Source of the DNA: Ectocarpus siliculosus
Taxonomy: Eukaryota > Sar > Phaeophyceae > Ectocarpales > Ectocarpaceae
NCBI GenBank assembly: GCA_000310025.1
Contig: FN649732.1
Coordinates: forward strand, 1,569,770 to 1,633,769
Reading direction: 5' to 3'
DNA: 64,000 bases
Both the position numbers and the translations under genes were made by a program. Below are positions 15,120 through 43,080 of this stretch, in pieces (position 1 is the stretch's first letter; every line of letters begins with the position of its first letter). The notes under the pieces are model-generated. The model did no database searches. It was not told where the DNA came from and saw only the letters and a list, made by a program, of their open reading frames with translations.

Positions 15120-16823
15120 GGAACATCCCGGAATGGCATCAAGGGCGATATCGGTCATGTCAGTAGTGTGGGCAGCACGCGTTCTTGGTGAGTCGGCGGT
15201 GGGAGCTAGCATACGCGCCGTACGAATAACACGAGTGACCATAGAAAGTCGCGTCATTGACTACCCAAGTTACGTTGACTAACCCAAAACCTGCTACTCG
15301 CTAGAGGGTAGGAAGGTTGTCTATCTTGTTCGATACGAAAAAACCCGGACGCGTGGGTCTGCTGCAGAACGTTTTTTGAAGGACATGCCCTTGAGGGCGA
15401 TGTCATGCACACATGCGCACTCGATGTGTAGAGCAAGCCCCGGCATTTAGCAATCCAAACGGTAACAGATATCAATATTGCGGGTGAACACTGATGACGC
15501 CAGAAGGTAGGTAATGCAGCAGGCTGTACAATGCTGTACACGTGCTGTACATGCAGTATTGCTGTACGCAGCAACGTTTGCTCTTTGTTCCCTCTCGAGA
15601 GGCAAGTGCGGGAAGAAACTGACTGCTGTAGCTCGATTGACCCGATGCAGCAACAGCGTGAAAGCACGTATTATCGACGAAACCAGGTAGATAAACGCCA
15701 GCAAAGAGTCAAAAACAACAGCGGTTCCGCTGCACTCGTTAGGTCTGATGCTCCTGTGCTGCTGACAAGGATGACCGTGTCCCAGGCCGTTCTGCTGCCA
15801 GCATGTTCAACTCTGGGCGCGCGGGTGAAATTCACCACAATTCCTGAAGCATACATAACATTTTCTCACCTCTCACCACCGAGAGAGTGGTGCACAGGAT
15901 TGCCGTAGTTCCGCGTACCATCGTGTGTGGGTGCACACGTGTGTCGGACAAGGCACAGCAGTGCTGGTCTGAGTTGCTGAGCACAATGCAAAGCAAGGCA
16001 TCAAGCATGTACTGGGGGTCCCGCGGAATGGTACGATATATTGCACGGTACCCGCGGGAACTTGTTGGTGCGGATCTTCGATCTTTCTGCGAGAGCTGCT
16101 GCAGATGCGCTTTGATGAGGGCCAGTAGGTCGGGATAGCTGCAAAGGCCCTTGATCGGCGATGCCAGCGGCAGCAGTTGCATCGACAGCACATTTTAGAG
16201 ATGCGGTCGCCCTGTACTCACAACATCTTGCGAGGTATGCGTGCGTGCTTCGACTACTCTTGCTGGAACATACATGTAGATAGACGTGGGTACGTTGTCT
16301 AGAACACACAGCTCGAGGTGCTTGAAAACGAGTACTTGTACCTGTGTCATCACGCAATCAAGTTTTCGCCATCATGAACAGTAGCACTATAGTCCTTCGC
16401 CTGAACCCACAACACTATATAAATCCCTATCGTGCGGCAAAATGTGCTTCAATATGTGCTGTTGGCTCCGCCTTGCTTGCCACAGCACCAAACACCACAA
16501 CCGTATGTGGTACGCGTATGCATACATCAAGCAGACCACCAATATTGCGTGAGGCAAACCAACCACTGCTGTGTCTGCACAGTTGCTGGCTTCCTGCACT
16601 ACTTGTGCAAACACAGCGGGTTCCATGTTACCTACAATCGATGGTAAGAGCACGTGGAGGGTACCGAAGCAGAAGAACGTGCCCTCGAGGGTTTTCAACC
16701 CCAACAGTCTCCCGTAATTCACGACACATGAGTTTCTGTAGTCCTATGCGCGGAGCCTACAGTAGTACATCTGTGGTAGAATATGCGCCATCAGCCAGAT
16801 AACTACGGTTGCCCGAGAAAGGG
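15120..16823. other. Intergenic between divergent genes
   Basis: Should hold promoters for the minus-strand gene at 15119 and the plus-strand gene at 16824. A GCTGTAC motif is repeated about four times in 15525-15575. No exon with recognisable homology found. Confidence 0.45.
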
Positions 16824-19800
16824 ATGACGGTTTTGCCGTTCCTGCCTTCTCGAACCACCACTTGTCCGTTGCCCTGCAGGCCGCCATCAGTCTCCCATCC
16901 AGCACCAGAAAGTGGCCGTCGAGGCCGACGGCGCCCCAAAAGCGCTTCCGCCGCGATACGACGAGGAGAGACGCGGACCCTTGGACTATCGGCCACTCCC
17001 GCAGGGACCTGTGAGGAGAACTCGAAGCGCAACACGCAGTCAGGGCAAGCAGGACCATCTCCCCTCATGGCTGCTCGCCCAGCAAGCGCGGCAGCCGTGA
17101 GCCATGTACGAGCACCTCCAACACCCAAAAGGCCATCACGCCCTCGTCCGGTCACCGCTACAGGCACGCCATCATGCCCTGAGAGGACCTATTACCACCA
17201 CCAACATTTTGAAGGCAACTCTACTCACGGGCGGGAAATCTCGTTGGCGCAGAAAAACCGACGGTGCCGCAGTGCGCAAGAACGAAGCTTGCTTTCATCA
17301 ACCGCGTGTCCGAGCCCCTCCGCCAGGTACCCCCGGGCGTCCAACAAAGCCAGTGCTACCAAACAAGCAGGTAGCACGTTTACCCGTGGTGCCCAGCCGA
17401 GGAGATACGACCAGAAGAGCGGCGATGCAACCACGGCCATAAATCCTCGCTGGGAGGGCCCGAAAACGGAGGGTACGGGCAACGCTACCGCCGCAGCTGA
17501 TACTGGTTTCTGGCATGAGCACGACTACCTTGGGACTGATTCTGCCACCATGCAGAGTGTCACGGAATTCGTGACGAAAATTTTGGGCACAAGGGCAAAG
17601 GAGGAGCGTAACAATGACCCATTGTCTCCTCAGTCCAAAGCCGGGCCTCATGCACCGGCCTCCCCGGTACCAGCTCCGTGTACAGAAAACGGGAAGATAG
17701 GCAACGGCGCCACGAGAATTGACTCAGACAGCAAACGAAATCGTCCAGGGTGGCGTCAAGGAAGCACGGATTATAAGAAAGCAAAACCATCAACAGTAAC
17801 ACCAAGAAACCGAAAAGGGTCATCACCCCCAAAGAAATCCTCCACAGGAGCAAGAAAGCAGAGCGGCGTTCACACGCGAAGAAGAAAGACGATCGGTCAG
17901 TCTGAATCGACGGCCCTCGTGCCAAACATCAATAGTCCCAAGTTCCTGTCGGGCCCCACGGAACCCGATCTCGACGGTGACGTTGTCGGTGACACGGAGA
18001 GGAGCGACGGCAGCTTCAAGGATCGGCCCGCACAGCCCGCACGAGTTTGCGAACGTGTCACCGAAGACTACGAGGCAAGTAGTGGCAACAAAGAGGACGT
18101 ATCAACAACAGAAAAACGAAGCCCCTCGTTGCCGATGACCCCGCTAACGTTCGATGTCTTCTGTTCCATGCGGCCAACACTCCGGAATAAGAGCCGTGGG
18201 CCGCAGAACCGGTCGGCTTCAGCAAAGGGCACCAGCTTGCCCAACAGCGCCCACGAAGGCAGCAGCAGCCAACGGAGCCGTCCAGCGTGCCAAAGAGGAC
18301 CTCCGTTGGGCGACAACAACTTCTCTTATTCGGCTTCATCAACCCTTCCCGTCGGAGATAGAGGGAAGGGGTGCACGTGGACATCTGTTTTCGGAGCAGT
18401 TTGCGCGGGCGCAGAGCGAGGTCGTGCGCGGGCGGAGGTCCTCAAGGCGGCGCGCCGAGAGTCGTTCCGGCTAAGACAAAGGCGAAAACGCGCCTCTTCT
18501 CCATTCGCACAACTTGTGCCCGGCGCGCCGGCCTCCGCTCCAACGGTTGGGGAGTACAAGAACACCGCCGAGTTTCTTGGCGATGCCATGGACGAGAAGA
18601 ACGACGAGAAGGCCTCAGAAGTGCCATCCGTGTCATACACAACGGAAGAGGTGAAGGCGGAAGCTGGAAAGGATGTCGCGGGCGATGAAGCACCGCGCGG
18701 AGGGTCGTGTGAGGAGACAAATCGCGATGCGGCCGATCCTTTACGGCTGCTTAACCCGATGGCAAGAGGTACTGTCGTGGACGACGGGCACGAACTAAAA
18801 GAAATTCGCCTTCTCTGCGACATCAGCGATGCCCGGCAAATGCCTGCCGCAGGGTCCATGGAAACTGGGGAGTTATCAGAAGGATGCCGGGAACAGACAG
18901 CGGATGACACATCGGCAAGGGCACACACGAAGATCCTTACACAGCACTCCGCGGGTACGGTGGCGACGTCTCCGCTGTTCCGGCGTCCGTTCGGGGGTGG
19001 TGCCACTCTCATCGGCGTCAACATGCCTCGAAGCATACAGGTGTGCCCTGGGGAACGCGGGTTCAGCGGTGCTACATTGGCAACGTCCAGGTCTTTCTTT
19101 TACTCCGCACAGCGGCGGCTGGGTGGCGAAGGGCGGTCGTGCACATCGCTTTCGGGCTGGTCATCGCCACGGCGCCCGTCAACTGCTGGCTGTATCGCAA
19201 GCCCCAGCGTAGCCAGTAGTGGTGGTGCCGGCAACGGTGATAACGACGACGGGAGGCAAGCTCTAGCTGGAGGGGGGGTAGGGCGGAGGCCAGACACGGC
19301 GAGGAGCTTCTTCTCCTCGAGGAAGCAGGGCAAGGCGTGGTGTTTCGAACACGAGAACAGGTGAGTGGTGCATGCCAAACACCATGTGGTAAGCGACATG
19401 AAAAGATCAAACCGCTCTCCACGTCCGATATGCTGTCTACATCCTAACGAGCCGTTCGCCTCGTTCTGAAGGCCTGGATGCCATGATACCTCTCTGCTGT
19501 CTAGGCTCCCAGAGTCGTGTAGACAAGTGCATATAGCTACGGACTGAGCGACGTGTTTCGAAACTTGGCCTCTTGATCCTCTACTATACCTCTGAAATAA
19601 CCCCAAACATTTCTTTCAACAGCGACCGAGGCTCTCGAAGGCTACAAGTGGATGGGGAGAGCCTTCGTCAAAGAGTCGACCAAATTGCCGACTCTATCGC
19701 AAAGAGCTTACAGTCTCGTCAGAGTACCAGGCCCAGTGGTGATTCATGGCACTGGCAACAGCAGCCGCAGCTTGAGGAGGGGGGGGGGGAGGAGGAGGGG

Positions 19801-20862
19801 GAGGAGGAGAAGAAGGAGGTGGAGGAATGCACTGCTACTCACAACGCGAACGAAGCGGCGAGTGCTGCGGCCCATTCGACGCGGACAAGCTCAAGACCCA
19901 AGCCGGAGGAGGAGGTGCAGCAGGAGCCAACCGAGCGTTCTACAGTCATCACTGCCGACGATGCGCGAGAGAGTCAGCCGCCAGACCTCGCTTCCCGGCC
20001 TGCTCCGGTTGCCGTTGATCCCGACCCTGGCACAGTCGATGTCTTAGGCTCGACGTTCGACTCCAGGGTAGCGCCGCCTATTGAACCTGGAGACCTCGCG
20101 ACAGCCATGAGGCCGGAGTCGGGTGCCGGCAACGCCACCGCCTTCGTTGATGTCGATCATGAAGCTGTGTCGATGGGACGGGATGAGCGGTTGCGACCCA
20201 GACCGTCTTCCGCCCCGCCGGAGCGTGCCACATTCCACGGGGCGAGGGCATTTGATGGTCGACAGACAGTCAGCAGTCCTGGTCTCATAGAAAATGCCCA
20301 CAAGATCAAGAGAGGAGTTATTCCCGGCGTGGTTGAGAGTGCAGCATCTCGGGCATTTCAAGGTTGTCTGGATCCTGACATGCCTCCTGCAGGCATGCCT
20401 GACGTCGTTGCGGGAGGTGGTGACGACCTGTCGAGCCACGTTAGGTACCCTTGTGCGAATCGCGGTGCCCCCTCGAGGACCGCTGGCCGGGATGGCGGTG
20501 GCGACGATGTTCATGTTGACGGTCGGCAAAATGATGCCTTCGGAGGGGGAGGTGGGGACGGAGCAGGAGGAAGAGGAGGAGGAGTGGTAAAAGCAGAAGA
20601 GCTCTGTGGCGGCAACGCCGACTCAAAACACGAGGCTGAACCTAGCAGTGGCGAGAGAGGAGAATTCGGGATACTTGTTGCACCGGAAAACTGCGTCGTG
20701 GGCAATAGGAGGTTTGTTTCTGGTACCGAACCCGAGCCTGGTGCGCTAGCAACGCCCGAGGCCGCGGAGATACACGAAAGGGCTGCTGCTATACCCAGGG
20801 TGGAAACTCCTCTAGACTTTCGGAATGCCACGGTGAAGCTGAAGGTGCACAACGAATACTGA
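16824..20862 (+). CDS. Large low-complexity protein of unknown function, 2 exons
   Basis: Exon 1 is 16824-19360 (donor CAG|GTGAGT); exon 2 is 19623-20862 (acceptor CAACAG); both sides are phase 2 and join in frame to about 1258 residues. The first ATG in the open frame is at 16824, since an in-frame stop lies at 16800. The protein is rich in Ser, Arg, Pro, Thr and Gly and appears mostly disordered. It contains several short RPxSA/RPxTA-type motifs (RPKSASAA, RPASAAA, RPVTATG, RRPSTAG, RRPDTA), some near both ends of exon 1. Exon 2 begins with a short amphipathic helix (SLRQRVDQIADSIAKSLQ), then a Glu-rich run. No enzymatic domain was recognised. An uninterrupted 2.5-kb frame in this context is unlikely by chance, which is the main support. 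Confidence 0.65.
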
Positions 20863-29471: not shown

Positions 29472-29515
29472 TCAGGAGCTCTGCGGGGCTTTGTTGTCGT
29501 TGTTGTTGCCGCCGC

Positions 29516-29561
<46 letters not shown>

Positions 29562-32500
29562 GCTGCTCGTGATGCTGATGCTGATGCTACTGGTGTCGCT
29601 TTCGTTGTTGGTTGAATCTAGAGTGAAGTCAGCCAGTACCTTCTTGAACGTGGGCCGAGCGGCCGGATCATGAACCCAGCATGCTTCTGCCAGGGCAGCG
29701 ATGTCGTGGGGGGCGTTTTCGGGGATGGGTGGTCTTTCTCCGGCAGTTACGGCCAGCACAAGCTTGTCCACCCCGGCGACCCCCTTCCACGGAACCTCGC
29801 GGGACAGGCACTCCCACACCACCACGCCAAAGCTGTACACATCGCCCTCGAAGCTGGAACCTCGTCTGTTCAAAACCTGTAAGAGGGAGATACGGAACGG
29901 GGGAGGACATAGGACAGCGGTGACAATTCGTGGAACACCTTGCGAAACGGTCGACCAAGCCATTCCCGTGAAACTTTTTTTCATGGTTCGTTTTCGGCTC
30001 TCCACATGGCGGAAGACGCACATCGCGGAACGTGCTTGCGCTTGATGGAAAACATCGGTTTCTCGCGAATTGCCACCGTCGGCTGGACGGCTGGAACGAT
30101 CCTAGGCCTGCAAACAGGGGTAGTTGAAGCTGAGGTAAGGATAAGGGCGCCCCCCGAGCCACAACCACCACGATCAATAAGGCATAACGCAAGGGTGTCA
30201 AAACGGACATCAAACAACGTCGTAAGCAATTTTCCAAGAGGCCTTCTTGACGCCTATGATAACTTAGTTTGGACCACGCGAACAAATCATGCTACCCAAT
30301 TGGACATCCACCGAGCCGTTTGTGCACATCGTCGCTTCTGGTGGTTGCTGGCCAAGACATTGGCCGGGAATTATAAATTTGCCGCCAAAAACGTCGTTAC
30401 GCCTGTAACACACGTGAGTTTAGGCTATGGCGGCCGTCTGCATACCATCAGCGTGTTTGTGCAATGGCCTACCTCAGGGGCAGCCCATGGGAGACTCATT
30501 CCGACCATTTCCCTCGGCTTGGTCGTATACGTCGCCAGGCGCGTCGAATGCTGCGTCCAAAGCGACGTTCCGAAGTCGGCAATCTGCGTAGTGCAATGGT
30601 AGTGAGACGCAATGGAAGGTATAAGAATCGTGAGCATTCAAAGGACTGCGCAACCTCATGCTGCCGACAAAATTAAACAGTGTTATCACCGCATAATTCG
30701 CGCAGAAAAACTCACGTTTGAGCTATACATCAAGCAAAATACTTGCCCAAAGTAGCCTCTGCATAGGAATGAAGGTTACACCGTCCACGCCGGAACACAA
30801 AAATAACTACCGGCGGGGCACAAGCGGACCGTAACCCTATTCTCGACCAGCCCCTTGGGAAACACGATGCCAAAAGGAATGCTGAAGCTGCTCAAGCAAC
30901 GGGGCGAATGAATACGCGAACAAGTATATCAGAACTAGAGAGAACGACCGACAGCAACTCCCACCGCCCGCAAGAATGGTTTCTACCTTGCACGACAAGT
31001 GGTCTGAACAGAAAGCATGCCAGGCCCAGGAACCCCTCCCCGCCAAAAATGAACTAGATTGTGGACCTCATTCCATCCATTCAGAAACGGGTTCCATTCC
31101 AAGTTGCATACGTTACCAGAACAAGTGAATACGAAGACGCGACCGTTCCATAACTCGCAAATACACAAACCTTATGAATTCGGAAATGGAAAATAATGAA
31201 ATAGAGCAAAGAAGAACTGCTGTTGTAGGAGGACATCAGATTGAGAACGAATCAACGAATGAATGCAGTGGAGCTCGTAGGAAATGAATACCTGCTTTCG
31301 TGGATTCAACGATCACAAGGGTTCACACCGTTATGGAGCGATGCCGTTTCTATCAGTGCTGGGTCCCACCGCTCCAAAACACTCAGGGACCTTCGCGCTC
31401 AGCCCGCAAGAATGATAGGTGAGTAAGCTGACTTGGATCGACTTGGTCGCTTGTTCGAATAGTGTGCAACATCCATCGGCGTCGACAAAAGGCGGACATA
31501 TCAACAGCGTACGAAAGCATCTGTCGTGGTTGATTGTTCGAGGCAAGCACGTGCATATTCAGAGTACGAAGGTACAAATCAATGAAGGGCAGAAAATACG
31601 AGCACACATCTCGCACCTTGGCCCTCCCCGTGGCGTCGAACAGAACGTTCGCCGACTTCAAGTCGCCGTGGACGGTCGCCTTGGCGTGCAAGAAGGCCAT
31701 CCCGCAGCAAACGTCCCTCACGATCTTCCTCAACACCTTCTCTTCCAGCGGCTCTTTCGCCTTCTTCAGGCGATGGCGTAGATCTCCGCCCTGCAGGAGC
31801 TCCATTACCTGATTTGATTTGCGATAATGCGGAGGCAAGCACCACGATAATCATTGTCAAAGACTTGCATGTATGTGACAGGAGGTCAATGCAGCTATGA
31901 CAGTGACGGTATACTTATACTCGGTGTACTTATACTCGCCGGCTTCGCGAGAGGGCACCAGTCAGCACCAAGCTCACCCACTGGAGCCTGGTCTGGTGGT
32001 TCGGTTCAATTATTTTCTGTGTTTCACGATACGCGATGAGTGAATTGCGCAACGCCAACTGCTGGGGGGCGGTTCACCTCTCATTCTGACGCTACCTTCA
32101 ATATCCATGACAGCATCCAAACGTGCGTCATCCATACATGTTCGATGTCGACGCTATGACGAACGTCCGCCAAATCGACCGTCTCATTACGAGGGGGGCA
32201 CTCCCGCTTACCAGGACGAGGCGATCAGGAAGGCTGGTCACGGCACCGTAGATCGTGACCGTGTGAGGTCCCCTCAGGCGCTTCATGGCCTCGAGCTCGC
32301 GCATGAACATCCTCCGCTGCCGCTGGTGTTCCCGCGACTGTTGTGACGCACGTGATAGCCCTTGCTGCTGTGAGTCGGTGGGCAATGTGGTGCTCTCCGT
32401 CTGACTCTGTCCCATCGCCGCGGCCTCCGCGTTCGGTCGGGGCTGTGACCTGCTTTGTGCTTCTCCATCGCCGGTACTGTCGAGAACACCACGACTGCCG

Positions 32501-34607
32501 TCGAGGACACCGTCGGTGCCATTGGAAACTGAGTCAGAGCCATCGTAATCATCATCGTCTTCCTCCTCATCTTCGAAGACCACCACCTTGGCCGCGGCGT
32601 TGAGGCCATGTAGGTCGGCCAGATAAACCGTGCCGAATCCACCCCTGCCCAGCACTTCGTTCGTGACTTCCACGTCCGACGCGGGGATTTCCAGCTGATC
32701 CAGGCGATGCTGCCTGCGTTTCTTCTTCGTCACCATCTCCGACTCCTGTTGCGGCAGAAGCGGTAGCGGGTATGGGGTACGGCTAGCGCTGGGGGGCCAA
32801 ACATTGTGCCTTGTCGCGACCTTCTCGAACTCACTGATGCTGCATACATGAGGTATTTTCAACTTCACAAAGGTGGAGACGGTAGGAGTGCCTGCACGTC
32901 CTCCCCGAAGATGAAATATACGATATGTCCATGCCTCTTTGATGCTACGATGTTGCGATAGTTGAGTGTAGACCGATACGCTACAGTAGCCTCTGCCACA
33001 AAACTCCGATACCTTTTACGATTTTATCGTCGCTCAATGTTTCCACCTCCCCAGATGGCCTGTCATTTCCGTCTGCTGTCCGATACCGAACCCTTCAAAT
33101 TAGCTCGCCACGATACAGTAGTTCGCGACCGGACCGTTATGAACATTGGTATATGTAGGCGTGCGCGTACAACTTTACAGGACGAATGTGCTTGATTGGG
33201 TGCTTCGGCCCGTCGGAGGGGAGACAATTATTGTGCTCTGCTGGGAAGCCCGCCCATAGCCCAGACGTTTGACCCCCGAGCAACACAGCCTATAAAACCC
33301 GACGAAGCAGTGCATGCAACACTCGGCGGCAAAGGCGAGGAGAGCAGAGGCAAGTTTGCAGCCCGTATGATACGTTGGTGGATGAGCTCCATACCCGAGG
33401 GCACTTGCCTGAGAAGCACGTCGGTGTAAGTCGAGGCCTTCCTGTACTGCCTCTCCCACGGACGCCAGGTTCTGACCCACGCGGACTTGCAGACCGAGCT
33501 GGACAACAATGCCATGTGTGCGCAAGTCCGCGCGAAGGGAACAAGGATACGTTATTGATGGCTTTTTTCAAGTTCTTCCCGAACTCTAGTGCCCGCCAAA
33601 AAATGGGGCAAATGATAACCATCCCGGAACTGACCCATGGGATACTCTCAGAGAGCAATACATGCCCTGCAAGCAGTCTACCTCAGCAACAACAAACGTT
33701 GAGGACGAACATAGCGGTACACTACCCAAATGTAAGTGTCTGTCTGAAACCGTGGACTGCCCGGGTCTCGGAAAGTGCATGCTGGCGACGGTGGCGTACG
33801 GTCGTGATTCGTGAGCCTCCGCTGACGATGAGCCCAAGAAAGACTGGGTCAAAGGAAACCTTTCACCCAGCACTGGGCTGCATTGAACAACCAACGGTGT
33901 GAAACAACACAACGATAGCAATATATACCAAATGCAAAAATACCAAAAGAAAATACAAACGTCTTCTCCTACACATCGCACCTGAAGCCGCTGCACGGCA
34001 GCGTTAATGGCGACCTCCGCCTCCTCCTGGCGTTTCTTGCACAGAGTGGACACGAATACCTTGGACAGGGCGTTCTTGCTCTTGTAGGACTCGATGATCT
34101 GCAGCAAGTCGGCGATGGAGTCCTGGACGTCGTCGAGGAGAACATGTACAGCCTGACTGTCTCCCTTTCCTGCCTTCGCCTCCTGAAACGGACGACGCGA
34201 GAGAACCAGGGACGAACGGGACAATGCGGTATACCGTGGATCGCGGGGACGCTCAATGCCTCGCCGTGGCGTTTGGCGTTCGCACCAGGTCTCACAGCAA
34301 TAAATCGGGAGTAATTTTACAATGACGATCGAATCGACGAGAGGGTTACGTCGACCCGACGACGGAACGGATCGGGAAAATGGAGCCCACCACGTCACAC
34401 TTCCTCTCCTTCGCGGCTTTCACTAAAGCGGGGAGCGTGCATGCTGCCTTGAATGAGGCACGGCGCGCAACATCACCGCGGCCTTCGTTCAGATTTTCGG
34501 GGAAGGCGGAGAGAAACGTCGAGTCAGTCAATCCGGGAGAGTGAAACATGTGGAGTCTATCAAGGAGACACTGCGAACAATGTTGGTCAAGTACAACAAA
34601 GAGAATA

Positions 34608-34671
<64 letters not shown>

Positions 34672-35155
34672 CACAGTAAGCACGATGAAACGAGAAAGAA
34701 CTGAGGCAAAGGCATGGGGTACTACAGGGGATACGGTAGAATGGAGATAGAGCACGATACAACAAAAACAAATACCTGAGGTCTCAATGAAAGGGATAAA
34801 GCCCGACACGTACCTTTCCCAGCACCTCCGCGGCTCGCTCCAGCGTATGCACGATAGATCGGCACCACCTTGCCCTTTTCTCCGACTCCTTGCCGTTATT
34901 TTTGTGATCCGACGCGAGTCCCACCAGCCCGGCCACAACGGAAGCCGCCTCCCTCACCTTCACAGCGGGAGACCAACACACCACCAACGAACCAACGGTT
35001 GACGATCAACACGTCCGAGGAATAAATCAGAGGATCAGGAATTGCTGCGTTGCTCTCGGTATTTCAAACCCACCCAGCGTGCAGTAGGGTATCAGCAGGA
35101 TGGCGCTGAAGACAACTACTGATCGGTCACTGACATAGCAATCAGCAAGAGCAGC

Positions 35156-35195
<40 letters not shown>

Positions 35196-38100
35196 CAACG
35201 AACAAACAACACATTGCGGCAGTTTCCCGTGCTTCTCACCCCCGGGAAGAACGACTGCTGCGCCAACGCCTCCGCGCCCGCCAAGGCCGCTGTGGCAATA
35301 TCTAGCACGGTCGTGCCGACCCCCTCCGCAACAGTACCCGAGGCAGACTGTTGTGCTGTAGACTCGGCCAAGGAGAGGCCGTTGTTTGCCTTGGCGGCGG
35401 TGGTCGTAGCGGACGCCGGTGGCAAAGGATCGGCGTTGTCATCATCGGTGTTGATGCTCTTGAGGGCTGAGAAGGAGGAGGCGGACGCGCGTAGGCGTGC
35501 GGTAGCCTCTGTCGTCAAGAGCGGTCCTGGTGACGAGGAAGAGCCGCCTCCGCCGTCCCCATTCATGTCGGTTTTCCCTCTCGTCCACGAGTAAGAAGCT
35601 TGCTCTTCGTCTCCGTAGGTGTCGCTGAGCGCGCCGGACAGAGGCAAGAATACCTTCCCCGCAGCAGCCGACGACGACGCCGGCCGGACGTCGTGCTCGC
35701 TAGGCGCCGACGCACCACGGCTGACGTCCTTCCTGAGCTTCCTCCTGCGCATGCAGCAGAAGATGAGCACCCCGGCTAGGATCGCCACGCCCCCGACCAC
35801 CCCCCCCGTGATCGCCGCTATCACTGTCGTCGACGAAGATGACGACGACGTCGCCGCAACAACTACGTCGTCAACTCCAGATGAGGAAGGCGACATTGAT
35901 GGTGATGGTGATGGCAGAGCGCCACTGCTGCTTCCCACGCTACCGCCGGTGTCGTCATCGTCATCACCTTCATCGCCGTCGTCCTCGTCATCACCTTCAT
36001 CGCCGTCGTCCTCGTCATCACCTTCGTCGTCGCCGTCATCGCTGGTGGTACTGCCGTCCAAGTCTCCCTCGCTGCCGCTGTAGCTGCCGCTGCTTGTGCC
36101 CACGGATCGTGCCGCCGTGGATGACGTCAGTGGCGGCGCTGTCGCACCCTCTACAGCAGACGGGGGAAAGAGACAAGAGATGCCACCACATTTGTTTGGG
36201 CGGTCGGCCGGGTGGGTGGGAAATACTCGAGAGAGAGAGAGAGTTCTTCAAGAGGGTATGGGAACGGTGTTGTCTGAAGTCATTCTCAGTTGGGGGACTG
36301 ATTGGGTATGCCGACGTCCGTGGCGATGTTAACAGACAGCCCGTCGTTGTCGGGCTGTTGCGAGAGACAAACCCCTCAACGTTCCTCACCGTCTCTCTGG
36401 TCCGGCCAGTTCGTGAGCAGGTTTCCGGTTAAATCCGCGTATAGGATGAAGGAGTTTGTAGACAGCGTGGTCGGAGTGTAGTACGGGATGTCGTCAGGCA
36501 CTTCTCCTGCAAAGTTTCATGCAGCAAAATCACGGCCAATACAAAAGCACGGCGGGTAACGGAGGGCACGGTCGTGCGCAATCAAAAGCGCGTTCATTCG
36601 TTTTCGTGAAGATGGCATCGAACCGAGAGAGAGAAAGGTTGAGGCAAACGTAGCGACGATATGTGTTCAGATTTTCTCTTGCATCACGAGAGGCGAGGTG
36701 CCATGAGCGAAAGGCTCCACATGGGCTTCTACAAGGCCCTATATCGATCGAACACGCCACCGCCAAGAGGTGTCGAGTGCAACGGACCTAATAAATGCTC
36801 CAGCCCTTTGATCTCCTCTCGCACCAAAATCTAGGGAATACTCCCACCCGCGAATCTGAGTACATTCTGACACGGACGTGCTTGAGCGGTGACACATCAA
36901 ATGCAGAGATGTATGACGGCCCTGTTCAGATGCAATTGCCATCAAGAAGAAATCTTGAAGCGAAAGAACTGCTGCCACGTAAAAAACGGCGAGGTCATTA
37001 TTTTTAACTCTCGGTGCATCCACAGACTCTAGGCAATACCTGAGAAGTAGTTGTTCTGGAGCCAAAGAACCCAAGAGAGGCTTCCACGGACAACCAGCTG
37101 GCCGATCTCCTCTGGGATTTCTCCTGTGTTCGAAGCGGGTACGGTGGCAGCGAAACGGCCACCATCAACATCCCACACAACAAGGAAAACCCCAGTAGCA
37201 AGAACACATGTGCAACACGCAGCGACAACCAACAACAACAGCAAACGACATCAGAAAAAAGGGAAAACGAGTGCCCGGGTGCCCTTGTGTGTCCCCTTCT
37301 GCTACAGCACCTCCCACATTCGAACACTCGCCCGTCCCGTGGCCCTTCCACGACAGGCACTTCCAACGGTAGTATAGATCTTGAGGTAGAACGCTATGGC
37401 TTCGCCCCACACAGAGATATCGAGTGTGCGTAGCACATGAGAGGTCAAGCCGTGGATTGATGCTAGTTTCATCTATACGTTGCGCTCCACAACGAAAGGG
37501 GGGAGAGACAATGGCGCGGGGGCGGTGGGCGTCGTCGTCGTCTTCTGTTGCAAGGTACTACAAGGTACTACAAGGTATTACAAGGTACTACAATGTACTA
37601 CAATGTACTACAATGTACTACAATGTATTACAATGTACTGAGTATTCATATTGGGTTTCCATCTACCCGTGATACGACCAAACCTACCGCTGAGACGGTT
37701 GTCCGCCAAGTTAAGGGCTGTCATCCATGTAAGGTTACCCAGGGAGGTAGGGATTTCCCCTGTACAGGCAGCAGCGAGAGCAGATATTGTCAAGAGCGCG
37801 CAGGGGAGGGAGGGGCGAGAGCGGGGGGGGTTGTGAGTATCGTCATCGCGCACGTCGCATCGAAGAGTGGTATGAAATGCTGCCGTTCGGCGAGTTTCAC
37901 GCTGGAATCAGCTGCAGCTTTCCTCACGATTGGCTTGCGACTCTACCCGTAGGGGTGGTTTTCCGCAATTGGTGGCATTCCTTCCTACCTGTGCAAATCC
38001 TCGTGGTTGGGGACTGCGAAGGAAAACAAGCAAATCAAAGAGTCGAAGCAAACATCAGAATCACGACACGTAAAGACCAAGATTCTTTAATGGGCGTATT

Positions 38101-41100
38101 GCTGTCACGTTATGACAATAACAACCCCACCAAATCAACAATAACAACAACAACAACGACGACGATGTGACGACACAACAACAAGCACCACACGAAGCAA
38201 CAAACCTGTGAGACGGTTGTCGTGAAGCAGGAGATTCTCCATCTGCTCCAGATTCCCGAGCTGCGGAGGTATCTCGCCTGCGAACCACCGAAAACATTGC
38301 ATTTCCGGTTGGAACATGACGTCGCCACGGGTTGCCCCGGGGGTAGGGGCAACCGACATCACGGCATCTAGATGCCAAGAGCAAAACCGCGTAGTCGCCT
38401 GCGTAGTGCGTTCCGTATGTCCTGGGTTGCACCAATGGCTCAGAAGCAGATCTGGCGCGTGTTTGCTGCACCGTGTTATTCTGGAGTGGCAATTCGGAGG
38501 TACTGGTTGGGTATGTAGCTGAGCCCCGTCGGCACTTCCTATTGTGGACTGGACCGCGCATCGGCGTGCCCCAATATCGTTTGGATGTCCCGTGCGGCCG
38601 AATAGGCCTCTATGAACATTGACTCGAACCACAGTATCGAATGTTGTAGCTTTGGATGGGGCAGCCGAAGGGGTAGGACCAAGTATGTGCCACATGCGCC
38701 GCAACGTCATCTTGCGCCGAACGCTACGACCGGGATATATTACCACCCGCAAGCGTGGTGACAGAGTGAAACTCAAGCTGCGACCGACGTACTTTGGATT
38801 GTCAATCCCTCGTCTACGCTCGCGGGTCGACACCTTGCCCAGCTAGGTAGTTGCATCTGCGGATTTTCATATTCCGTCTGCAACACAACCGTCGCTCGAT
38901 CGAGTGGCATGATCTCATGTTCTCTTACCGTCGAGGTCGTTGCCGAAGAGATACAACTCCTCGAGGACCGCCAGGTCGCCCAACTCCTTGGGGATAGAAC
39001 CTGTCATTTTCAACAGATATCACCATCAGTCGGAAGAGCTTTCATCGTGACCAGGCCAACTAACCGCTCGAACGTGTTGTGCTGCGAGTTCCAGGCGACA
39101 TGTCTTCCCCAAACCGACAAACGTATACAAGTACATGGTAAAACAAAGGCAATGCCAACAAAACAAAGGCTCATATTTCCCGCTATTGGCTGACCTCTTT
39201 TTCTTGGCCAGCTGGTTGTAGTGGCCGACGTAAAAATCTAAACACGCACACACTGGATATGGCAGTGACCCTACGCTGAAGGCTTCCGTCGGGACGCCAA
39301 GGAAGATGTCGTACGCGCAATAGCAATCTCTGCCTGGGAAACGCGGGGTATGGAGATGGCCACACTGCCTCGACTTGCACACGGATGGCGCCAGCGAACA
39401 GCCAGCGCCATGAATGTGTGGGTGGTATTAAACTCAAAACCATATCAAACTTTCGCCATGCTAGGTATATTGCAGAAACGTTTTGCCTTATCTCTAACGC
39501 ATACCTCGGGTAGCAACACCGGCACACAGGATGCGGCAGCGGGTGGAAAACTTACCGGTTAAGAAGTTCGTGTTCAGGTCAAGGACCTCCAGATTCTGCA
39601 GCTTCCCCAGCTCGGGAGGGATGGGACCTGCGGGATAAAGCAACCAAGACCAAGCGCAAACAAACAACACACGGGCGCCGTTACATGGAAATAGCTACCA
39701 ACAACCAACGATAACGCCGACTAGGTGTGAGAAAAGCTGCGAGAGAATACCGGACGAAATACTTCGATAATGGCGTCCACAGAAGCGCGCAAGGGCAGAT
39801 GGTACAGTTGGGAATCTGTGAGCATGAAGGCACTCAGCCCGGGCTACTCGCGGCCAGAAAACATCCACCCCACTCTCTCACAGAAAGAAATGATATTGGC
39901 ATTGAATTTTCTACTCAACGCCTGCGGTATACCGCGGTCGGTACCCGCTGGCGAGCTCTTGCTTTCGTTTGACATTGTGCCTTTGCCAGAATAACGCTTT
40001 TAACTCCAAACTCACGATATCAGTGTGCGCAATCAAACGTCAGCAACAACACCTACACCACGATGGCGATGACCATCACGCAAAGCGAAACAAACCATCT
40101 GGTGACATCGCCAACCACGCCAGTACCAGCAGCCCGAAACCCAGACCGATAAACAAACTACCTACAACGGCGACCGACATCAGTAGCAAAACCATTGCAA
40201 CCCCATCATAAGACAAAGGGCAGAAGCCCATCGCTGAGCTTGAACAAAACCGACCGTTGTTACCCTTGCTCTTCTGAGTAACATGCACAGCGGATGAAAG
40301 CATGGCCACTACCACAACATGTTCACACCCTACCCTACCCCGTATGAATGAGATTCAAATCCGGGAAAACGATGGACATTCCGCCTGACGCCTGACGTTC
40401 GCGACCAGCCAAGAGCACTATCCAGAATGCACGAGTATGCAATTCCTGATTGTCTCATTGGCGGGATGGGTGGCCCATATTACGCGTTCCTTATCATGAG
40501 AGTGCTGCCGGTCGCATACACGCACACCACACACCTGTGAGAGAATTGATTCCCAGGTACATGTCTTCCACCGCGGTCAGGTTGCCGATTTCTGGCGGAA
40601 GGTCACCTTGCGGGGCAGCAAAAACGAGGAGCAGTTCAATGCGGTCGAATCATCCATCGCCCGGTCGGTGGTGCCGCCACGGAGAAGTCACATAACAAGA
40701 CCCGTTGGGGTGCGAGGTGGAAAGAGGATCGACGACTGGATGTTACCATAGGGACATCTACGGTACAGCAGCCAGCTCGACTGTTACCAGCGAGAGAGGA
40801 AGCTCCCGGTCCGAAGGGGGTTCGTAACATGTGCTGCACAACTGTCAGAGCAACAACGTTCTAAGGTTCAAATGCAGGGCAGACACAACCCCAACCCCAC
40901 CAGCGGGGTACACTTTGCCCAGATTCGGAGACTGGATAGGTAGGGGGCGGGTGGCATGGGTGGATTGGTCACTTTGTCGGTTGCGAAATCAAAATTGAGG
41001 CATGTTGGAGTAGCAGCACGCCGCCCGGGTACAATACGGGAGGCGAGTCAGGCAACCTTGTTGAATCGCAAAAATAGCGAGTCTCCATGTAGGGTCTTCA

Positions 41101-43080
41101 GGGATTGATACGAATGTAACCCTCACAACACATGTCCGAATCCATAAAAAGGTACGTTTTCCGCACGTACAAGAATCACGCGCTCGACGAGGAGCCAGAA
41201 CGGGAAGCCGCGAAAGCTTCGCCATTCACCACAAGCCCGTGGTATAATCTTCGGATGAATCTTCAAGCAATGCAAGTCGTAACCGTTTTCAACCCCGTGC
41301 TTACATCGAGCCCAATAGCAATTTAGTGTCATGAAGGTAGTAACCGAAGGAGACTGAATTTAGGTACAGGACCGCGTCGAAATCTGCTGCCTGAAACTAG
41401 TTAAGGCATGAGCCCGTAGGTTAATTCTTACCTCACCATATTGTGCTCATCTCACCACGATTGTGCCAACTGAGTGTAGGGGCGGCACCTCATACCTTCT
41501 ATCATAAACACCCACGTAAAACCGGTAAGGGCTGACATGCACAGTCCCGGTCGAACCCTCAAGCACTAGTCCCATCTCTCAAAAACATTTCTAAAACGCA
41601 GTTACCCCTTGCTGCGATCAATTATCCATCCCCAATCTCGCAAAATGCTCTTCTCGAACTCAAACAAGTATACAAAAGCATAAAATTAAGTGCAAAGGTC
41701 TGCCTTCCCAAACAATGACGCCACATCCCCTAGCCTCGAGAACAACACGCTGGAGCGTGGCAGGCACACGCGAGTCTCTCGACGTAAGAACGTCTCTCTC
41801 GCCTTTGGCTCAAATCTTCGTCAAAGGCCAATGGTACCTACCTTGCAGGTTGTTCTTTCCCAGCGAGACCCTCGAGACATACGACCCGGTCTCGTTGATG
41901 GAGAGCCCGTACCAGGAGCTCATGTCACTGCTGTTCGTGGCCCAACCGTCGTTATCTGTCCACTCTGAACCGCCAGTCGCGTTGTACAGCGTGAGGAGAG
42001 CCTCGCGGTCCTGTTCAAGATCGCCTGCCAACACCGTCAGAGGTTGTTTGTCGTTCAACGCAGAAAATGCTTGGGACTGCTGCACAGATCTGTGTCGCGA
42101 ACGTTGGAAGTTGGACAAACTTCGAATCATGGCCCATTCACTTCATGGACCAGCCGAGAATTCCAGAATTCCTTGAGAGAGCAGGGACGGCGTGGCAAGC
42201 CTCGTGACACTGTTGGCTCTTTGAAAAAAATAAATGGAAAATTTCGTTGCCCATACCCTCGGTGTGAACTGCTAGCCCTCGCGGGGTCAACATCAAATAA
42301 ATGCCATGGTTCAACATGCAAGGCTCCCCTTCGGGAGTTAGGTGGCTTGCCTCCCGGGGGCGACGAAAGAGGACATGCCATATGTCACCGTGGCCGCATC
42401 GTTGCATCTCAACGACCATGGCGTTCGGTAGGGGGTGTCGGTTTTGCGTACAAGTATAACCTGCAGAATTTGCCTGGAACTTGCATCATGTGCGGGGTAT
42501 TTTTTGTTTCGCTGCGACTTGTGCGTGGGTGTGTGATATGAGGCTAAATAGTGACGTCTTTGCGCAGGAATCGAAACAAAAGTCTCCCTGTTAATGCCAA
42601 GCAATTGGTTTTGTATTTCTTGCGAAGGCTTTCTTCGCGCGCAACACGTCCCCGAGAATAGAGCCAGTGTTTTCAACTTTGGGCGCCAAGCACAAGTGCC
42701 ACGGGTGGCTGGCGGTCCTCGGGCGTGCGCGGTAATATACCGACGATCCGCCTGCGTGCCCCTGAGAAGGAAGCGTGAGGAAGTACCCCCCTCCGCCAGC
42801 GACATAGACTATGTCCCGAAGCACGAAAACAGGCGAACAGGTACATATTGAGATACACCATATCACACAGCACCATCACGTTGCTGGTTGGGGGCGGGGC
42901 GTCGAGCGTCTCGACAAAAACGACCCAAGCGTAGGAGACTACCGCCTTCCGCCCGGCTGCCAAACACTAAGTCATTGGAAGCCTGAGAAGGAATGAACAC
43001 GTGTGACACCCACCTTGGCAGACAGGCGCAAGCAGAACCATCACTATCGGCACCACCAGGCACCATGGATGATGCGTCAT
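29472..43080 (-). CDS. LRR receptor-like TKL kinase with MLKL-NTD-like helical region, 17 exons
   Basis: Exons in coding order: 43080-43014, 42024-41842, 40606-40535, 39627-39556, 39000-38929, 38277-38206, 37759-37688, 37123-37040, 36506-36390, 36150-35240, 34957-34814, 34182-33982, 33498-33409, 32862-32212, 31808-31617, 30583-30473, 29876-29472. They splice in frame to 1171 residues. Order: signal peptide 1-22 (WCLVVPIVMVLLA); LRR cap (DREALLTLYNATGG, WYGLSIN); LRR exons such as GDLPPEIGNLTAVEDMYL; acidic DDGDEGDD stalk; membrane span about 379-403 followed by MRRRK; a helical region 575-719 resembling the MLKL N-terminal bundle (LLDDVQDSIADLLQIIESYK); kinase with GRGGFGTVY (about 791), AAAK (811), an acidic insert, HGDLKSANVL (983), DFG (1003), APE (1035). 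The kinase is non-RD. Intron 13 uses GC-AG. The C-terminal tail is poly-Ser. Inferred to be a plasma-membrane receptor kinase; the ligand is unknown. Confidence 0.88.
29518..29560. repeat. (CTG)n trinucleotide run encoding poly-Ser
   Basis: On the minus strand this is (AGC)n and encodes the Ser tract near the C terminus of the receptor kinase, followed by Gly and Asn residues and the stop at 29472-29474. Confidence 0.9.
34613..34669. repeat. (GA)n microsatellite in a receptor-kinase intron
   Basis: About 57 bases between exons 34814-34957 and 33982-34182. It is not coding in the model. Confidence 0.9.
35156..35194. repeat. (CAG)n microsatellite in a receptor-kinase intron
   Basis: Lies in the intron 34958-35239, just downstream of the donor of the membrane-span exon. 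Confidence 0.85.
35961..36041. repeat. Coding 27-bp minisatellite
   Basis: Two exact copies and a third imperfect copy of a 27-base unit containing TCATCACCTTCATCGCC. On the minus strand each unit encodes nine residues of the type DDGDEGDDE, forming the acidic extracellular stalk just outside the membrane span of the receptor kinase. Confidence 0.85.
37553..37640. repeat. 10-bp tandem repeat in an LRR intron
   Basis: About eight to nine copies of TACAAKGTAC with T/C variants. The unit shifts from the AAGGTA to the AATGTA version midway, as expected from stepwise expansion. Lies between the 37040-37123 and 37688-37759 LRR exons. Confidence 0.9.

What the first reader, a model, noticed from the sequence alone, without database searches (positions are those of the whole stretch)
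29472..43080. Receptor kinase joining an LRR ectodomain, an MLKL-like helical region and a TKL kinase
Seventeen exons splice with consistent phase into one 1171-residue protein. Between the membrane span (about 379-403) and the kinase, residues 575-719 are predicted helical and resemble the N-terminal bundle of MLKL-type kinases, a fold used elsewhere for membrane disruption in cell death. A bundle of this type fixed to a transmembrane LRR receptor would put recognition, signalling and a possible executor module in one chain. The similarity is judged by eye.
Basis: partly seen in the sequence, partly recalled or inferred. Interest (0 to 1): 0.85.

Follow-up and report, generated by a model that had tools for sequence, protein, structure and literature searches.

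The report
Seaweed surface receptors carrying MLKL-like bundle
A probable brown-algal cell-surface receptor carries, inside the cell, a helix bundle that weakly but consistently resembles the one used by the cell-death protein MLKL, followed by a probably active kinase, and the same inner part is shared by about twenty related genes with different outer parts.

Summary
Seventeen minus-strand exons join in phase into one protein, 1132 aa in my model (reader: 1171): signal peptide, LRRs, stalk, membrane span 380-400, linker, helical region, TKL kinase.

The MLKL likeness is supported, below Pfam's cut-off: MLKL_N E 2.3e-5, 24.4 bits against 27. Twelve of 19 family domains match at E <= 10; 0 of 10 pattern-preserving shuffles do. 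Two sequence tests failed. The spliced domain was not folded.

The gene is not alone: 20 loci carry this bundle with kinase exons, one clade against seven other kinases tried. By position, two have LRRs upstream, four propeller-like repeats, ten a third module. In eight paralogues membrane span and bundle start share one open frame, against a two-gene split. Bundle exons show purifying selection (dN/dS 0.16).

The kinase looks active and non-RD. The bundle is internal, near-neutral and lacks a hydrophobic lead helix, so a regulatory or oligomerising role is likelier than membrane disruption. Ectocarpus LRR receptor kinases are known (two genes, PMC3268121); my searches listed no report of the bundle.

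The parts
43014..43080 (-). exon 1, signal peptide (aa 1-22)
41842..42024 (-). exon 2, N-terminal cap of the LRR ectodomain (aa 23-83)
   Evidence: many similar exons elsewhere in the genome (list cut)
37688..40606 (-). exons 3-7, one 24-residue LRR each, all 72 nt with the same phase (40535-40606, 39556-39627, 38929-39000, 38206-38277, 37688-37759)
36390..37123 (-). exons 8-9, last LRR-like segments and end of the ectodomain (37040-37123, 36390-36506)
35240..36150 (-). exon 10: acidic Ser/Asp stalk, membrane span, basic stop-transfer and linker
35762..35824 (-). membrane span, aa 380-400
   Evidence: Kyte-Doolittle 2.43 over 21 residues
35240..35320 (-). conserved segment aa 548-574 ending in (I/V/F)PG, ahead of the bundle; read here as an extra helix
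   Evidence: alignment A1; that it is a helix is inference
33982..34957 (-). exons 11-12 (34814-34957, 33982-34182): MLKL_N-like four-helix bundle, aa 575-689
   Evidence: exon 12 alone is predicted as two helices, pLDDT 77.6
33409..33498 (-). exon 13, aa 690-719, end of the MLKL_N match plus a brace-like segment of variable length in paralogues
   Evidence: brace role is inference
29628..32676 (-). TKL kinase domain, exons 14-17 (aa about 743-1081); Gly loop, AAK, RELE, HGD, DFG and APE present
32335..32574 (-). acidic low-complexity insert of about 80 residues inside the kinase N lobe, where most paralogues appear to have an intron
29472..29627 (-). Ser-rich C-terminal tail and stop codon

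Best explanation
This is one of two LRR members of a family of single-pass receptor kinases in a probable brown alga. The conserved inner module is an MLKL_N/HeLo-like helix bundle, a brace-like segment and a non-RD TKL kinase with its catalytic motifs; the outer part differs between members (LRR, propeller-like or a third small module). Shown from sequence: gene structure, membrane span, family, shared inner module, different outer parts lying upstream, purifying selection. Probable: the bundle belongs to the MLKL_N/HeLo superfamily. Inferred mechanism: ligand binding outside clusters the receptors; the bundle and brace pack against the kinase as the MLKL bundle packs against its pseudokinase, hold it off at rest and self-associate on clustering; the kinases then trans-phosphorylate and signal, plausibly in defence or stress. 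The bundle serves as switch and oligomerisation scaffold rather than as a pore.
For: 20 loci with the bundle and kinase exons, one kinase clade at 99/96 against seven other kinases tried. Eleven columns invariant in 19 of 19 aligned domains. Span and bundle start share one open frame in 8 paralogues. Upstream parts by position: LRR 2, propeller-like 4, third module 10 of 20; the last propeller-like repeat lies in the same open frame as span and bundle in all four. Third-module hits: 9 of 9 and 10 of 11 at family loci. MLKL_N 2.3e-5, 12 of 19 domains at E <= 10, 0 of 10 control shuffles. dN/dS 0.164 in the bundle, 0.178 in the kinase. HGDLKS(A/S)N in 19 of 20 family kinases, the exception (C12_144000) having lost the frame there. 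Bundle near-neutral, net -4 to +7 over 19, and no hydrophobic lead helix in the window protein.
Against: No domain that I scanned singly reaches the MLKL_N cut-off; 7 of 19 show no match at E <= 10, among them C28 and both C11 domains. PDB profile search and HMMER cross-searches were negative; Foldseek with exon 12 was uninformative. The whole bundle was not folded. No ligand, expression or activity data. The span was seen in 11 of 20 loci: window and 8 paralogues by hydropathy, the C7 copy and C33:4463188 by eye; in the others it was not reached or not found. For the third module the splicing to the kinase was not traced, only order and strand.
Confidence: 0.55

Rival explanations
1. Receptor with built-in executor: on ligand binding the tethered MLKL-like bundle is released from the kinase, oligomerises and disrupts the plasma membrane, killing the cell.
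For: MLKL_N similarity; HeLo/MLKL bundles are reported to kill in animals, plants and fungi (PMC10951266 and PMC10197012, passages seen); the membrane span already holds the bundle at the membrane; a conserved basic cluster (KKR/KRR) in the fourth helix; the same genome has MLKL_N next to kinases and next to NB-ARC domains.
Against: The bundle is internal, with no free N terminus; N-terminal tags are said to compromise MLKL killing (PMC7305131). Highest 21-residue hydropathy around the start of the bundle is 1.27 and the net charge is near zero. The kinase looks active, whereas in MLKL a pseudokinase controls the bundle.
Confidence: 0.17
2. The helical region is an unrelated juxtamembrane helical domain of this receptor family; the MLKL_N match is a chance or convergent likeness between amphipathic bundles.
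For: Sub-threshold score, negative PDB profile and HMMER cross-searches; 7 of 19 domains without a match; hhalign probability only 3%; Foldseek with exon 12 found only generic helical matches, none at E <= 0.001.
Against: MLKL_N is the commonest family over the 19 domains, with members 42% identical to each other at 2.3e-5 and 8.6e-5 over the same profile stretch; 0 of 10 pattern-preserving shuffles hit it; hhalign score above all 100 column shuffles; the order bundle, brace-like segment, kinase matches MLKL.
Confidence: 0.22
3. Two adjacent genes (an LRR membrane protein and a bundle-kinase) wrongly joined.
For: No transcript data here.
Against: The near-copy keeps the order; 8 paralogues have span and bundle start in one open frame; phases and splice sites agree.
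Confidence: 0.03

Closest known systems
Ectocarpus LRR receptor kinases (Dievart et al. 2011, PMC3268121; passages and section 5 read)
   Same: Signal peptide, LRRs, one membrane span, kinase; that paper counts 2 such genes in Ectocarpus and I find 2 family loci with such LRRs in this genome
   Different: The passages and section I saw mention no helical MLKL-like domain ('MLKL' occurs 0 times in its main text); identity with those two genes was not tested
Vertebrate MLKL (PMC7305131; passages read)
   Same: Four-helix bundle, brace, kinase fold in that order
   Different: MLKL is cytoplasmic at rest with an N-terminal bundle and a pseudokinase; here membrane span, internal bundle, catalytic motifs present
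Plant MLKL_NTD-kinase Pm13 (PMC10951266; passages read)
   Same: MLKL_NTD-type bundle joined to a kinase described there as unlike the MLKL pseudokinases
   Different: Pm13-GFP is reported in nucleus and cytoplasm; here a receptor with ectodomain
Fungal HeLo/HELL domains of NLRs and HET-S (PMC10197012; passages read)
   Same: Helical bundle coupled to a receptor
   Different: Fungal domains are described as N-terminal with a membrane-prone helix; here internal without one
Brown-algal LRR-ROCO genes with shuffled 72-bp LRR exons (PMC11378527; passages read)
   Same: One LRR per 72-nt exon with equal phase
   Different: Here ectodomain of a receptor kinase; Pfam lists no ROC-COR match at E <= 1

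Membership tests
LRR receptor kinase (as defined in PMC3268121) | signal peptide, LRRs in the ectodomain, membrane span, kinase domain | tested here: met
LRR receptor kinase (as defined in PMC3268121) | only LRRs in the ectodomain | tested here: met
   Pfam lists no other family in the ectodomain at E <= 1
MLKL_N / HeLo superfamily | match to the curated profile above its cut-off | tested here: inconclusive
   24.4 bits against 27, E 2.3e-5; 12 of 19 domains match at E <= 10
MLKL_N / HeLo superfamily | four-helix bundle fold | tested here: inconclusive
   exon 12 alone gives two helices; spliced domain not submitted, see Tried and rejected
MLKL (the necroptosis executor) | pseudokinase | tested here: not met
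   Gly loop, K, HGD, DFG and APE motifs present in the window gene
MLKL (the necroptosis executor) | N-terminal bundle in a cytosolic protein | tested here: not met
   signal peptide, ectodomain and span precede the bundle
MLKL (the necroptosis executor) | membrane permeabilisation on phosphorylation | not testable with these tools
   needs cell assay
Fungal HeLo/HELL effector domain | N-terminal membrane-prone first helix | tested here: not met
   highest 21-residue hydropathy 1.27 at aa 547-567, and the domain is internal

The most novel reading that the evidence does not exclude
Brown algae evolved cell-surface receptors that each carry their own necroptosis-type bundle, so that recognition, switch and killing sit in one chain, with the same bundle class also found next to kinases of MLKL-like order and next to NB-ARC domains of the same genome: a fourth lineage, after animals, plants and fungi, built on HeLo-type signalling.
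Probability: 0.15. Interest if true: 0.9.

Novelty: new variant of a known kind. Interest (0 to 1): 0.6.

Why it matters
Little is known of how brown algae sense partners and pathogens. About twenty genes that keep one inner receptor module and differ in the outer one would be a candidate receptor system of that lineage. If the inner bundle is confirmed as MLKL/HeLo type, membrane receptors and a cell-death domain class would be joined in one protein, a combination my searches did not list, and whether it regulates the kinase or kills becomes a direct test.

Tried and rejected
Two-gene split: rejected. Chance exon joining: rejected by the conserved copy. PDB search with one sequence and with the 19-member profile: no MLKL. 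HMMER cross-search of the two profiles: not above shuffles. hhalign with the two C21 domains alone: E 0.38, nothing. Foldseek with the exon 12 model: no match at E <= 0.001. Paper searches (10 of 10 used): none of the papers listed joins brown-algal receptor kinases with MLKL or HeLo, judged from titles and abstract starts; several listings were cut, the library is open-access only, and papers I wanted were not held. Other brown algae were not searched: metagenome scans were capped at 0, and the other whole-genome collections hold bacteria and archaea or viruses. A mini-exon at about 38014 was looked at by eye and dropped because its length breaks the phase.

Rows dropped or marked: C33_4461279 left out of alignment A1 (stop in its exon 12 match). 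In the kinase tree stop signs in typed or extended exons were written X, none mended; two loci, C33_4461279 and C15_1593750, have stops inside kinase exons. C12_144000 loses the frame in exon 15. C28 gave no acceptable match for exons 13, 16 and 17. The tree holds only seven kinases from outside the family, four of them fragments; the 134 Pfam kinase matches were not all included.
Full report
Gene. The 17 exons join on the minus strand from 43080 to 29472 with consistent phases into 1132 residues. Five consecutive LRR exons (3-7) are each 72 nt with equal phase; 72-bp LRR exons are reported as the unit of exon shuffling in brown-algal ROCO genes (PMC11378527, passages seen). The protein has a signal-peptide-like stretch at 5-25 and a span at 380-400 followed by RRRKLRK, a linker, the helical region and a TKL kinase (Pfam 2.3e-52).

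Family. A protein search with residues 575-719 gives 40 exon-wise matches at 20 loci, the window gene included. More DNA on the kinase side was fetched for the 19 others; kinase exons follow in order, in C28 only as far as exon 15. The kinase tree puts the 20 in one clade (99/96) against seven other kinases of the genome that I put in (three MLKL-like, four others as fragments); long branches make the deeper joins unsure. The window gene and its inverted copy at C7:1544613-1556709 group with C28 (100/98).

Outer parts. In the search with exons 2-9 (162 matches, 150 of 349 candidates scored, list cut) the listed LRR matches lie at two family loci only, the window gene and its copy; the rest lie elsewhere. 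That agrees with the two LRR receptor kinases counted in Ectocarpus (PMC3268121, section 5 read). Repeats of about 50 residues resembling a propeller (best Pfam DUF5122, E 0.0088, below cut-off) lie upstream in C1, C13 and two C472 genes, the last repeat in one open frame with span and bundle; similar repeats also occur elsewhere. A third module (a short Asp/Tyr/Cys segment) gave 9 hits, all 9 upstream of family kinases on the same strand; a neighbouring segment gave 11 hits, 10 of them at family loci, adding C15:1602747 weakly (E 0.045). Assignment is by position, up to about 9 kb; splicing was not traced. Four loci stay unassigned (C28, two on C11, C12:153008).

One gene, not two. In 8 paralogues the span and the start of the bundle lie in one open frame, 174-262 residues from the end of the span to the (I/V)PG motif; in the window protein the same distance is about 170. 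Between window and copy dN/dS is 0.164 for exons 11-13 (142 codons), 0.178 for exons 14-17 (380 codons) and 0.496 for the aligned part of exon 10. Where the alignment reaches the exon end, the copy has AG acceptors (6 of 6: exons 11, 13-17) and GT donors (6 of 6: exons 10-12, 14-16).

The bundle. Alignment A1 holds 19 domains, 31-89% identical to the first, with 11 invariant columns. Pfam MLKL_N matches 12 of 19 at E <= 10, best 2.3e-5. Values seen singly: window 2.3e-5, C16:7980967 8.6e-5, C55 2.6e-4, C7 copy 3.0e-4, C1 0.035, C472:113609 0.057, C15:5229501 0.024. No match: C16:6734692, C12:153008, C13, C11:338221 (E <= 10), C28 and C11:314468 (E <= 1). Ten shuffles that keep the hydrophobic/polar pattern give no MLKL_N match; their best match to any family has E 0.0061. 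Other families match fewer members and more weakly, GIT1_C in 9 of 19 (best 0.009), DAHL in 2 (best 0.0018). Against: none of the values seen reaches 27 bits, the PDB profile search shows no MLKL, and HMMER cross-searches between A1 and six MLKL_N domains of the genome do not beat shuffles. hhalign aligns them colinearly over 92 columns, score 21.45 against a maximum of 19.57 in 100 column shuffles and 16.93 reversed. Exon 12 alone is predicted as two helices (7-32, 38-66; mean pLDDT 77.6), compatible but not specific. I put superfamily membership at about 0.75-0.8.

Kinase. The window gene has Gly loop, AAK, RELE, HGD, DFG and APE. HGDLKS(A/S)N is read in 19 of 20 (not C12:153008), DFG in 18 of 20 (not C28, whose exon 16 was not found, nor C33:4463188). 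HGD in place of HRD makes it non-RD; non-RD kinases in plants are often immune receptors (recalled). The window gene, its copy and apparently C28 read through an acidic insert where most others seem to have an intron.

Mechanism. Vertebrate MLKL couples a killer bundle to a pseudokinase through a brace (PMC7305131, passages seen). Here order and probable fold agree, but the kinase looks active, the bundle is internal and near-neutral (net -4 to +7 over 19), and no hydrophobic helix leads it. I therefore favour a switch or clustering module (0.55) over an executor (0.17). Unrelated bundle: 0.22.

Wider setting. The genome also has MLKL_N matches over the cut-off at C10:3221557 and C29:552094, each followed by a kinase match, and at C485:50478 and C21:3137075. 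The C21 match lies about 0.8 kb upstream of an NB-ARC match on the same strand; a second, sub-threshold pair is at C21:3142917 and 3144002. So MLKL_N-type domains occur in this genome beside kinases and perhaps on NLR-like proteins.

Verdict. The receptor is known in kind; the shared MLKL-like inner module with differing outer parts is not in the papers my searches listed. New variant of a known kind, interest 0.6.

Noticed in passing
own genome C21:3135681-3137386 (-) and C21:3142917-3144589 (+); loci L059, L061, L067, L068: Pfam MLKL_N matches (28.7 and 20.7 bits, cut-off 27) sit about 0.8 kb upstream, on the same strand, of NB-ARC matches in two similar places, suggesting NLR-like proteins with a MLKL_N/HeLo N terminus as in fungi; the joining exons were not fetched whole. 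A third, very weak pair is at C21:2955352 (16.4 bits) and 2956016.
   Followed up: partly
own genome C10:3221557-3222966, C29:552094-553422, C25:272712-274087 (L001-L003): MLKL_N match followed by a kinase with HRD: order as in MLKL. The C25 match is weak (18 bits, one stop). Membrane spans were not tested there.
   Followed up: partly
window 32335-32574: Acidic insert of about 80 residues in the kinase N lobe, open in the window gene and its copy and apparently in C28, where most paralogues seem to have an intron: perhaps a retained intron turned coding.
   Followed up: partly
own genome C7:1544613-1556709: Near-copy of the window gene in inverted orientation about 43 kb away, dS 0.24 over exons 10-17.
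   Followed up: yes
C15:1593750-1604429 and C33:4461279-4472199 (L031, L055, L034, L035, L057): Two family members carry in-frame stops in bundle or kinase exons and may be decaying copies.
   Followed up: no
window 16803-19364 (+) and 19537-20862 (+): Long open frames of 853 and 441 codons without any Pfam match at E <= 0.001.
   Followed up: partly
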